NCBI GenBank assembly: GCA_012729575.1
Contig: JAAYCW010000021.1
Coordinates: 1 to 40,214, forward strand
DNA length: 40,214 bases
DNA from: Actinomycetota bacterium
GTDB taxonomy: Bacteria > Actinomycetota > Thermoleophilia > RBG-16-64-13
Direction of reading: 5' to 3'
Shown here: piece by piece, positions 14,290 through 18,056 of the stretch
Position numbering within the stretch: position 1 is the first letter of the stretch
Layout of the letters: each line of letters begins with the position of its first letter
Program-made: the position numbers and the translations under genes
Notes under the pieces: generated by a model
The model's input: the letters and a program-made list of their open reading frames with translations, nothing else
Told to the model about the DNA's origin: nothing
Databases searched by the model: none

Positions 14290-15515
14290 TGTACCGGGAT
14301 TCGGTACCCGGATACGTAGTGCTCAAGGACGGCACGGTCTTCGCGGGCTTCGGGTTCGCGGCTCAGGGCCGGGTCTTGGGAGAGGTGGTTTTCAATACTT
14401 CCATGACCGGCTACCAGGAGGTCGTCACCGATCCGTCCTATCACGGGCAGATGGTCGTCTTCACCTACCCGATGATCGGCAACTACGGCGTCTGCGCCGG
14501 TCTGGCCGAGTCCGATACCGTACACTCGCGGGCTATCATCGTTCGGGAGGTTAAGAACACCTCTAGGACCACCGGCTGTCCGGAGGGTTGGGTGGACTGG
14601 CTCACCGACCAAGGCACAGTGGGGGTGGGCGGCATCGACACGCGCGCTCTCACCCGGCGCATCCGGGAGCATGGGGCCATGACGGCGTGCGTGGCCGCCG
14701 GTCCCGATCTCAAAGTGAACGGTCTTCTGGCGGCGGCTCAAGGCCATCCCGACATGGCCGGATTGGATCTGGCCAGCGCCGTCAGCTGTCGGGAGCCGTA
14801 TGAGTGGTCTGCGCCCGGTCCTCACGCCCCTGGCCCTCGCCTGCGGGTGGTGGCGTACGACTACGGAATCAAACGCAGCATCCTCAAGAGCCTGGCGGCC
14901 ATCGACTGCGACGTCACGGTGGTGCCGGCTCACTGGACGGCCGAACAGACCCTGGCCATGAAGCCCGACGGTGTGTTCCTTTCCAACGGCCCGGGGGATC
15001 CGGCGGCAGTGGGGTACGCGGTGGAGACCATCCGGAGCCTCTTGGGGAAGGTGCCCATCTTCGGCGTGTGTCTCGGCCACCAGTTGCTCGCTCTCGCCAC
15101 GGGGCTCTCCACCTATAAGCTGATGTTCGGCCATCGCGGCTCCAACCATCCCGTAAGGGACTACTTCACGGGTCGGGTGGAGATTACCAGCCAGAACCAC
15201 GGTTTTGCCGTCAGTCCGCCTGTTGCGGTCCAAGAGGCCCTCGATCGTGGCTCGGTGATAGGGGAAGGCGGCGTCGCCGGATTGGAGGCGGATGAGTTGC
15301 TCGTCGAGTCGGATCAGGGCATGGTCCAGATCACCCACCTCAATCTCAACGATGGAACGGTCGAAGGACTACGGCTTGTTGATCTTCCGGCCTTTTCGGT
15401 CCAGTACCACCCGGAAGCAGGTCCGGGGCCGCACGACAGCCAATATCTGTTTGAGAGATTCAGAACGCTGATGTCCGAGGGTGCCGGCAACAAGCCGGTT
15501 CCGGCGAGGAGGTGA
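14289..15515 (+). CDS. carA: Carbamoyl-phosphate synthase small (glutaminase) chain
   Basis: Releases ammonia from glutamine for carbamoyl-phosphate synthesis by the large chain. It is 408 residues from the ATG at 14289. The N-terminal domain has VVFNTSMTGYQEVVTDPSY and a C-terminal class I glutamine amidotransferase domain follows. The triad is visible: the cysteine in FGVCLGHQLLALA, and the histidine and glutamate in VQYHPEAGPGPHD. The start overlaps the pyrC stop (TGATG). carB, which normally follows, is absent here; a DUF3467 gene begins two bases after the carA stop instead. The large chain must be encoded outside the window. Confidence 0.96.
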   Translation: MYRDSVPGYVVLKDGTVFAGFGFAAQGRVLGEVVFNTSMTGYQEVVTDPSYHGQMVVFTYPMIGNYGVCAGLAESDTVHSRAIIVREVKNTSRTTGCPEGWVDWLTDQGTVGVGGIDTRALTRRIREHGAMTACVAAGPDLKVNGLLAAAQGHPDMAGLDLASAVSCREPYEWSAPGPHAPGPRLRVVAYDYGIKRSILKSLAAIDCDVTVVPAHWTAEQTLAMKPDGVFLSNGPGDPAAVGYAVETIRSLLGKVPIFGVCLGHQLLALATGLSTYKLMFGHRGSNHPVRDYFTGRVEITSQNHGFAVSPPVAVQEALDRGSVIGEGGVAGLEADELLVESDQGMVQITHLNLNDGTVEGLRLVDLPAFSVQYHPEAGPGPHDSQYLFERFRTLMSEGAGNKPVPARR

Positions 15516-15517
15516 TC

Positions 15518-15826
15518 ATGGCGGCAGGGGAAGCTACGAAAGGCACTCCCGACGGCGGCAGCAACGGTCACAAGCGCACCGACCTGAAGCTACGGGTACC
15601 CGAGCAGGTCGCCGGCGGGGCGTACGCCAACAGCATGATGGTGCAGCACACGGCGTCGGAGTTCGTCATGGACTTCGCTATGGTCATGGGCGGCAACGGC
15701 CAAGTGGTGGCGCGGGTGGTGACCAGTCCCGGGCACATGAAGCACATCGTGGCGGCTCTGACCGAGAACATTCGCAAGTACGAAGCCGCTCACGGTCCGA
15801 TCGGGCCCCGGCCGAAGGATGAGTGA
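15518..15826 (+). CDS. DUF3467-family protein
   Basis: A 102-residue protein that fits the DUF3467 family, small soluble proteins of unknown function. The recognisable core is VAGGAYANSMMVQHTASEFVMDF, followed by a short segment ending in SPGHMKHIVAALTENIRKYE. The first 30 residues are Gly/Lys/Asp-rich and look disordered. There is no signal peptide or membrane segment. The ATG at 15518 has an excellent GGAGGTGAT ribosome site that overlaps the carA stop, so it is in the same transcript as pyrC-carA. The selenocysteine peroxiredoxin follows 27 bases later. I do not assign a function. Confidence 0.8.
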   Translation: MAAGEATKGTPDGGSNGHKRTDLKLRVPEQVAGGAYANSMMVQHTASEFVMDFAMVMGGNGQVVARVVTSPGHMKHIVAALTENIRKYEAAHGPIGPRPKDE

Positions 15827-15853
15827 CCAGTCAGATATCAAGGAGGCATGGAG

Positions 15854-16318
15854 ATGCTGAGTGTGGGCGATAAGGCGCCGTTCTTCAAAGCGGCGGGAAG
15901 CGAGGGCGAAGTCGATCTGGCTGCTCTCTTGGAGTCGAAGCCGGTGGTGCTGTACTTCTTCCCTCGGGCGCTGACCCCAGGTTGAACGACCGAGGCGGTT
16001 GAGTTCAACCAATTGCTTCCAGAGTTCGAGGAGCTGGGCGTGACGGTAGTCGGGACCTCGGTGGACCCGGTGGCCCGGCTGCAGAAATTCCGTGACAAGT
16101 ACGATCTGCAGTTCCCGTTCGCCAGCGACGAGGATCGGGCTATCGGCGAGGCGTACGGGACCTTGAAAGGAGATCTGTCCAGCTCGCACGAACGGGATAC
16201 AGTGCTCATCGGCAAGGATGGAACGATTCTGTTAGCCTATCAGAGGGTCAAGGCAAAGGGCCATGCGGCGGATGTGCTCCGTGAGACGAGGAGACTGCGT
16301 GAGGAAGGCCGGATCTAG
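15854..16318 (+). CDS. Selenocysteine peroxiredoxin (AhpC/BCP-type), TGA-encoded Sec44
   Basis: A 154-residue peroxiredoxin that would reduce H2O2 and organic peroxides. The frame from ATG 15854 contains one internal TGA at 15983-15985, codon 44. It sits exactly where the catalytic peroxidatic cysteine lies in the BCP/PrxQ motif: PRALTPG-TGA-TTEAVEF against the usual TPGCTTEA. Both sides are clearly one protein: VGDKAPFF, the VVLYFFP strand before the TGA, then VTVVGTSVDP, FPFASDEDRAI and DTVLIGKDGTILLAY after it. A SECIS-like hairpin follows the TGA. The start is fixed by AGGAGG at 15841, seven bases before ATG 15854 (ATG 15848 is too close). No cysteine is encoded anywhere, so Sec would be the only redox residue and an outside thiol would have to regenerate it. 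A disabling mutation is less likely, since the rest is intact. The selenocysteine machinery lies outside the window. Confidence 0.9.
15983..16019 (+). promoter_or_regulatory. Sec codon and bacterial SECIS-like hairpin
   Basis: Directly after the UGA (15983-15985) the mRNA can form a lower stem GAGGC (15992-15996) with GCTTC (16015-16019), including one G-U pair. An upper stem follows, GGTTG (15997-16001) with CAACC (16006-16010), with a loop AGTT (16002-16005) and a four-base bulge AATT on the 3' side. The loop begins 16 nt after the UGA and has G in its second position. Both features fit the published bacterial SECIS model (apical loop about 16-37 nt from UGA, G among the first two loop bases). 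An alternative fold, ACCG/CGGT with loop AGG, lies closer to the UGA. Confidence 0.75.
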
Positions 16319-18056
16319 TGATATAGGCTCGCGGGTCTGGGATGACGTCTGGACGCGCGTGTTGGTCTTGTTGTTGGTGGTTGGTTCGGCTATCTACTTC
16401 GTTGGGATGGCGCTGGGATCTCCCGATTCCTCGGCCCGAGCGGAGAGCGAACATTATGAGGGGGCGGCCGCTGGGAACCCGGCGACGGTTGTCCTCGCTG
16501 CCAGTACAGGTGTGGGGGCTGCGGGCGAGGAGGATGCGGCTACCCTGGTCGGTGCCGGTTGGGTCCACCGGGTGACGACCACAGACACCGCCGTGCCCAC
16601 AGACAGCACCGGGCCCACCGGTACCACACCAACCACTGAGACGACCCCGCCACCGGAGACCACTACCACCACCGAGTCGGAACCTGTCGACGACATTGAC
16701 GCCGTTGAGGTCGATGTGGTGGTGTATGCCACCCAGACGTCCGGTTTGGCGGCCGTGCGCGAGCTGGTGCTCGGTGCACCGCACCTCCGGGTGGCCCTGA
16801 TCTCCTGCGGCAACCTTCTCGAGACTCCTCTGGCCCAGGGATTGAGTGTCGAGGATGCCCGCAACATCGGCGATGTTGACGGGGGTTTCTATGGCGAATG
16901 GCGCCGGGACGTCATCGGCTACTACAATGCCCGCGGAGTGAGGCCGTTCACCAACAGCGGCCGTTTCGTGTACGAACCTACTGTGGCTGCGAAGATCCTG
17001 TGGTCGTATGTGTTCGGAGACGCGGCGCCCAACGTCCGCTTCTACTCGGCGAAGCTCCTCGCGGCGAGCGACCGGGAAGACCGGCGCTACGTAGACATAC
17101 AGGTGGAGGGAGCGGGTCTGACCCGGCTGAACACCACCTACTTCATCGACGCCAGCGTGGAGGGCGATCTGGCCCGCATGCTCGGCGCCGATTATCGCAT
17201 CGGTAGGACCGAGGACGTCTACAACGACGCACAGGGTAGCAGGCCGGCTTATCCCAGCGCCGAGAACGGCTACGTGACGGCACCCCAGAGGTTCTCGGCG
17301 CTTCTGACGCTCAAGGTCCAGTCCCAGGGCCGGGCGCCCCGCATCGCCGATCTCCTCCATCCCAACTACGACAGGAGCTCCTTTGCGGGCACCACCTTCT
17401 CGGCTAAGAACGTGGCCGCCTTCGGCAGCAGCTGGAGCATGAGGATCGCTGTGCTGCCCAACGGCAAGCGCGAGTTGAACGAGACTTGGAGCGACTGGCC
17501 GGACATAGGTCTGGCCTTTCAGTGGGTGTTCGAGCCCGAACGGCGTGGAGACATCCGCAAACGCGTCCTGCAGTGGAGCATCAACCGTGCTCGTTATCTG
17601 CAGGAGAACGGGTACCCGCAAGTGGGGATCGACTCCATCCCACAGAAACTGTACGTGCGCGAGGGACCGCGTATTGTAGGCCTGGATACCTACACGGCGG
17701 CCGACCTGCAGTCAGGGGCGTTGCGCCAACCGGTTGCGGTCGGTTGCTACTGTGAGTACGACAGACACGACGCCTTCTACCCAACCCATATCGAGACCAC
17801 CCGGTACGCGAACCTGCCCTGGGGGGCCCTCCAGGCTGCAGATCATCCTGCCTTGCTGGTGTCCACAGCCGTCTCGACCGACTTTGCCGCCTACAGCTCT
17901 GCCGTCCGCATGGAGCACACGCGGGCGAACATGGGGGCCGCCGCGGCCATGACGGTGATGGCGGCTGCGGAGTCCGGGATGGAGCCGGGCGAAGTTGCGT
18001 ACGAAGCCATCCGCACGAAACTGCTCGCCCGGGGTTATCAGATCCCCCCGATGTAG
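16299..18056 (+). CDS. Membrane-anchored FAD-dependent-oxidoreductase-like protein
   Basis: A 585-residue protein. After a short cytoplasmic start there is one hydrophobic helix (about residues 21-39), then a long Thr/Pro/Glu-rich linker to about residue 135. A domain resembling the FAD_oxidored family (VDVVVYATQTSGLAAVRE, later YFIDASVEGDLARMLGADYRIG) fills the rest. The body therefore probably sits outside the membrane. The dinucleotide motif is degenerate: family members usually have GGTPAG or GxGxxG, and here only the last glycine remains, so FAD binding is in doubt. The GTG at 16299 has GAGGAG five bases upstream and overlaps the peroxiredoxin end by 20 bases, which argues for coupled translation. 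An ATG at 16263 lacks a ribosome site. The substrate is unknown. Confidence 0.72.
   Translation: MRKAGSSDIGSRVWDDVWTRVLVLLLVVGSAIYFVGMALGSPDSSARAESEHYEGAAAGNPATVVLAASTGVGAAGEEDAATLVGAGWVHRVTTTDTAVPTDSTGPTGTTPTTETTPPPETTTTTESEPVDDIDAVEVDVVVYATQTSGLAAVRELVLGAPHLRVALISCGNLLETPLAQGLSVEDARNIGDVDGGFYGEWRRDVIGYYNARGVRPFTNSGRFVYEPTVAAKILWSYVFGDAAPNVRFYSAKLLAASDREDRRYVDIQVEGAGLTRLNTTYFIDASVEGDLARMLGADYRIGRTEDVYNDAQGSRPAYPSAENGYVTAPQRFSALLTLKVQSQGRAPRIADLLHPNYDRSSFAGTTFSAKNVAAFGSSWSMRIAVLPNGKRELNETWSDWPDIGLAFQWVFEPERRGDIRKRVLQWSINRARYLQENGYPQVGIDSIPQKLYVREGPRIVGLDTYTAADLQSGALRQPVAVGCYCEYDRHDAFYPTHIETTRYANLPWGALQAADHPALLVSTAVSTDFAAYSSAVRMEHTRANMGAAAAMTVMAAAESGMEPGEVAYEAIRTKLLARGYQIPPM

What the first reader, a model, noticed from the sequence alone, without database searches (positions are those of the whole stretch)
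15983..16019. SECIS-like hairpin immediately after the Sec codon
GAGGC-GGTTG, loop AGTT, CAACC, bulge AATT, GCTTC forms a 10-bp interrupted stem. Its loop starts 16 nt from the UGA and has G in the second position, meeting the bacterial SECIS rules. The coding sequence is constrained there too, so the structure is independent support for recoding.
Basis: partly seen in the sequence, partly recalled or inferred. Interest (0 to 1): 0.7.

Follow-up and report, generated by a model that had tools for sequence, protein, structure and literature searches.

The report
Bacterial SECIS hairpin in selenocysteine peroxiredoxin
A small RNA hairpin just after a UGA codon tells the bacterium to insert selenocysteine, not stop, at the active site of an antioxidant enzyme; it is real and evolutionarily conserved, but of a kind already well known.

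Summary
The hairpin is real and is best read as a bacterial SECIS. UGA 15983-15985 stands for the peroxidatic Cys of an AhpC/TSA peroxiredoxin (15854-16318). A 5-bp stem 15997-16001/16006-16010 closes loop AGUU (16002-16005), 16 nt from the UGA, G in second place. In 28 UGA-bearing relatives the five pairs hold in 139 of 140 cells; three pairs show double compensatory changes (11, 4 and 4 sequences), 0 of 500 shuffles reaching the covariation score. Redrawing synonymous codons predicts the stem in 1.25 of 28; 27 have it. Val49 is GTT in 23 of 24, against 18 of 310 Val codons elsewhere. 112 of 113 Cys rows have at most 3 pairs; two Cys orthologues nested in the Sec clade lost the stem. The genome has selA, selB, tRNA-Sec and two UGA-containing selD. 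Corrections: the lower stem is poorly conserved (60.7% of cells), and RNAfold's minimum is another register with the same loop start. The bSECIS rules alone are weak: 424 of 1131 UGAs in the window pass a loose version. Sec peroxiredoxins with bSECIS are known.

The parts
15854..16318 (+). Sec-containing peroxiredoxin gene (AhpC/TSA, PrxQ/Bcp-like), 154 aa with one in-frame UGA, ending in TAG
   Evidence: AAGGAGG at 15840-15846, 7 nt before the ATG
15983..15985 (+). UGA codon read as selenocysteine 44, at the peroxidatic position of PRALTPGU
   Evidence: UGA in 28 of 30 members of the clade, Cys (TGT) in 2
15997..16001 (+). 5' strand of conserved SECIS stem (GGUUG)
16002..16005 (+). apical loop AGUU, invariant in 28 Sec sequences, G in second position
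16006..16010 (+). 3' strand of conserved SECIS stem (CAACC)
15992..15996 (+).
16015..16019 (+). 16010-16019 is also the 3' strand of the alternative 10-bp register

Best explanation
It is a bacterial selenocysteine insertion sequence (bSECIS). When the ribosome reaches UGA 15983, the hairpin with the exposed AGUU loop recruits SelB with selenocysteyl-tRNA(Sec), and Sec is inserted as the peroxidatic residue of a one-Sec peroxiredoxin that reduces peroxides; its selenenic acid is then reduced by an outside thiol, since the protein has no cysteine. Shown by sequence: the UGA/Cys exchange, the conserved covarying stem, the invariant loop, the synonymous constraint, and selA, selB, tRNA-Sec and selD in the genome. 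Inferred: SelB binding, Sec insertion in the cell, the peroxidase activity and the reductant.
For: UGA aligns with the peroxidatic Cys. The 5-bp stem holds in 139 of 140 cells over 28 Sec sequences, with double changes at 3 pairs. G010 (L027) has CAUCG/CGAUG where the window has GGUUG/CAACC, three double changes inside the window's own family. Synonymous draws expect 1.25 of 28 stems, observed 27. Val49 is GTT in 10 of 11 Val in the window's family and 13 of 13 in a second family, against 13 of 139 and 4 of 140 Val codons elsewhere. Cys rows lack the stem: 112 of 113 have <=3 pairs. Sec machinery. UGA still serves as a stop for neighbouring genes (carA 15513-15515, DUF3467 gene 15824-15826), which speaks against a wholesale code change. 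Published bSECIS model met (PMC13188914, passages).
Against: In a 180-nt context RNAfold gives both hairpin registers under 1% probability (0.003 and 0.006). The 5-bp core alone is -5.9 kcal/mol, short of the published -7.5. One of 28 (L033) breaks the fixed register and would need a 7-nt loop. Three other UGA-bearing peroxiredoxins of the phylum (L151, L152, L157) show no good hairpin (best 3-4 bp). No Rfam family reached its threshold in the window. No expression or protein data.
Confidence: 0.95

Rival explanations
1. The palindrome is a by-product of the protein sequence (EAVEFN) and of codon bias, with no RNA function.
For: E50 and F51 (GAG TTC) are invariant in the clade and supply the loop; AAC and TTC are the favoured codons in these genes.
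Against: Synonymous draws keep the five pairs in 4.5% on average, against 27 of 28 observed; Val49 uses the rare GTT in 23 of 24; residues 49, 52 and 53 change together so as to keep pairing (L027, L148, L149, L172); Cys orthologues L029 and L031 keep the EF residues but lose the stem.
Confidence: 0.02
2. The UGA is a sequencing error or a decaying pseudogene.
For: The window lies in a fragmented assembly (206 contigs).
Against: The same UGA stands in 28 of 30 members of the clade from separate genomes; the frame is open to TAG and 43-79% identical to 14 other UGA-bearing relatives.
Confidence: 0.01
3. UGA is read as another residue (Trp, Gly, Cys) by a changed code or by plain readthrough.
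For: UGA can be reassigned in some bacteria (recalled).
Against: Neighbouring genes end in UGA; the genome holds selA, selB, tRNA-Sec with anticodon UCA, and selD; the other codons at this position are all Cys (TGC 101, TGT 12, TGA 43 of 156 rows).
Confidence: 0.01

Closest known systems
Bacterial SECIS (bSECIS) consensus model, as described in PMC13188914 (passages read)
   Same: 4-16 bp upper stem, 3-9 nt loop, G in the first two loop positions followed by U, 16-37 nt from UGA, inside the coding region
   Different: Spacing is at the lower limit (16 nt); the 5-bp core alone is weaker than the -7.5 kcal/mol limit and needs the lower stem or the alternative register to pass
Sec-containing peroxiredoxins (Prx, COG1225 / PF00578, motif PxxxTxxU; PMC13188914, PMC1088965 and PMC1794560, passages read)
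   Same: AhpC/TSA family; P37-x3-T41-x2-U44
   Different: No cysteine at all in the window's protein; many Cys homologues carry a Cys 5 residues after the peroxidatic one
Cys-form PrxQ/Bcp (NF006960, NF053650; PDB 5enu, 5iiz, 3drn)
   Same: Best NCBIfam matches and among the best solved relatives
   Different: Below both NCBIfam cut-offs; Sec in place of the peroxidatic Cys; no Cys at +5

Membership tests
bSECIS | Apical loop of 3-9 nt on a stem of 4-16 bp | tested here: met
   4-nt loop on 5 bp; the alternative register has an 8-nt loop on 10 bp
bSECIS | G in one of the first two loop positions | tested here: met
   AGUU in 28 of 28 sequences of the Sec clade
bSECIS | 16-37 nt between UGA and the loop | tested here: met
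   16 nt, the lower limit
bSECIS | Minimum free energy at or below -7.5 kcal/mol | tested here: met
bSECIS | Conserved among Sec orthologues, absent from Cys forms | tested here: met
   27 of 28 of the Sec clade against 1 of 113 Cys rows with 5 pairs
bSECIS | Binds SelB and directs Sec insertion | not testable with these tools
   needs a bench test
Sec-containing peroxiredoxin (Prx) | AhpC/TSA domain with PxxxTxxU motif | tested here: met
   PF00578 5.2e-32; P37, T41, U44
Sec-containing peroxiredoxin (Prx) | Host has the Sec-decoding trait (selA, selB, selC, selD) | tested here: met
Sec-containing peroxiredoxin (Prx) | Peroxidase activity | not testable with these tools
   needs an enzyme assay
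PrxQ/Bcp equivalogs (NF006960, NF053650) | Score over the curated cut-off | tested here: not met
   89.1 of 140 bits and 82.5 of 260 bits
PrxU (NF040737) | Score over the curated cut-off | tested here: not met
   38.2 of 270 bits

The most novel reading that the evidence does not exclude
In the window's lineage the SECIS may be two-state: GGUUG can pair with CAACC (4-nt AGUU loop, conserved throughout) or, shifted by four bases, with CAAUU within a 10-bp stem (8-nt loop). The two exclude each other and share the loop start, so shifting between them could tune Sec insertion. In L023 (the window) and L030 the long alternative is rarer than codon choice predicts even when the core stem is kept (P 0.017 and 0.015), but the other ten family members do not show this.
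Probability: 0.06. Interest if true: 0.5.

Novelty: new member of a known kind. Interest (0 to 1): 0.27.

Why it matters
It turns a UGA-interrupted frame, which ordinary gene callers would split, into a well-supported selenoprotein gene, and gives a SECIS backed by covariation for a little-known actinobacterial lineage. The clade also holds two Cys members nested among Sec forms, one in a genome where selA and tRNA-Sec were not found, which makes the decay of a SECIS after loss of Sec directly visible.

Tried and rejected
RNAfold's minimum (10 bp, 8-nt loop) as the conserved structure: rejected for the clade, since only 61.1% of its cells pair over 28 sequences, against 88.3% for the 7-bp and 99.3% for the 5-bp AGUU hairpin. 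Rfam over the window: no match at gathering thresholds. The genome-contig scan gave 80 loci, 5 of them with TGA at the position, two of these copies of genomes already held. The script on selD also printed chance frames; only the two 'GAG/GSG-U-ACK' frames are taken as selD. Papers: Thermoleophilia with selenocysteine gave 3 papers and PrxQ with selenocysteine and SECIS gave 2 (listings only; no title has the subject); these searches do not show that nobody has listed the gene.

Rows dropped: of 156 loci aligned at the position, 43 had TGA; 5 copies (L065, L066, L145-L147) were dropped, leaving 38; 28 formed one clade with a common register and went into A3; the other 10 (L118, L119, L123, L151, L152, L157, L174-L177) have other hairpins or none and were left out of the pair counts. 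The 113 Cys rows were not cleared of copies. The tree holds all 38 Sec rows but only 12 of the 113 Cys rows. One further listed match with an in-frame TGA (G284) was not fetched, and the match lists were cut by the tool.

Full report
What is there. The frame 15854-16318 encodes a 154-residue AhpC/TSA peroxiredoxin (PF00578, 5.2e-32) with one in-frame UGA at 15983-15985, residue 44. The UGA sits where homologues have the peroxidatic Cys (of 156 aligned loci, 101 TGC, 12 TGT, 43 TGA before copies were removed), within P37-x3-T41-x2-U44, the motif given for Sec peroxiredoxins in PMC13188914 (passage). The best NCBIfam match is the PrxQ/Bcp-type thiol peroxidase, below its cut-off. The window's protein has no cysteine at all.

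The hairpin. Two pairings compete. In the 48-nt local fold the second has about 95% probability and the first about 4.5%; in 180 nt of context both fall under 1%. [quoted passage not shown] Rules alone are cheap: 424 of 1131 UGAs on both strands of the window pass a loose version, 6 of 1131 the strict register.

Conservation. Relatives came from searches of 399 genomes of the class, 18 of the family and 396 of the phylum, and from 80 loci of named genomes. After removal of five copies, 38 sequences had TGA; 28 form one clade with two Cys members (support 98/93). Over these 28 the five pairs 15997-16001/16006-16010 hold in 139 of 140 cells; the pairs that start at 15997, 15998 and 16000 show double changes in 11, 4 and 4 sequences. 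RNAalifold on its own returns exactly these five pairs. The shuffle control does not remove relatedness, but the changes fall in several lineages of the tree: L027 inside the window's own family (CAUCG/CGAUG), a second family (CGUUG/CAACG) and a third group (CCUCG/CGAGG). The exception, L033, can form GGUGG-AGUUCAA-CCACC with the same loop start.

Coding constraint. Drawing synonymous codons by the usage of these genes gives five pairs in 4.5% on average, 1.25 expected of 28, 27 observed; for the window's own sequence P = 0.023. Val49 is GTT in 23 of 24, against 18 of 310 Val codons elsewhere in the same genes; the same holds in each of the two large families apart (10 of 11 against 13 of 139; 13 of 13 against 4 of 140).

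Cys controls. Of 113 Cys rows one (L138, an archaeon) has five pairs, 112 have three or fewer. The two Cys orthologues nested in the Sec clade, L029 (G040) and L031 (G052), keep the AGUU letters but have decayed stems. G040, 96% complete, has no match to selA or tRNA-Sec, while G052 keeps both. PMC1794560 (passages) describes remnant SECIS-like structures in Cys forms that came from selenoproteins; these two look alike.

Machinery. G000 has selB and selA on one contig with tRNA-Sec (anticodon TCA) and two selD loci each with one in-frame TGA. In the family, 15 of 18 genomes have selA over the cut-off and 14 of 18 tRNA-Sec. UGA is a working stop in the window (carA 15513-15515, DUF3467 gene 15824-15826).

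Reading. This is a bSECIS in a Sec peroxiredoxin. The DNA-level facts are shown; SelB binding, insertion and peroxidase activity are inferred. 

Open points. In L023 and L030 the longer alternative register is rarer than codon choice predicts even given the core (P 0.017, 0.015), while ten other family members do not show this; a two-state SECIS is possible but unlikely. Three UGA-bearing peroxiredoxins of another family (L151, L152, L157) have no good hairpin and stay unexplained.

Noticed in passing
L017 and L018 (own genome, contigs C163 and C68): Two selD copies, each with one in-frame TGA at a 'U-A-C-K' site, so selenophosphate synthetase itself appears to be a selenoprotein, in two copies.
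   Followed up: partly
L151, L152, L157: UGA-bearing peroxiredoxins of another family of the phylum (THEAKDF motif) with no hairpin meeting the bSECIS model well (best 3-4 bp); either an unusual SECIS or another arrangement.
   Followed up: partly
L174-L177: A further UGA-bearing peroxiredoxin group with a different hairpin, 7 bp with a 7-nt loop, placed away from the window's clade in the tree.
   Followed up: partly
L118, L119, L123: UGA in place of the peroxidatic Cys of peroxiredoxins in Gemmatimonadota and Acidobacteriota records; L118 and L123 keep a Cys 5 residues after the UGA.
   Followed up: no
window 14322-18056: Neighbours carA, a DUF3467 gene and an FAD-dependent oxidoreductase recur beside the peroxiredoxin: CarA matched in 12, the oxidoreductase in 7 and DUF3467 in 7 of 19 loci examined (window's own locus included; several loci are cut short).
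   Followed up: partly
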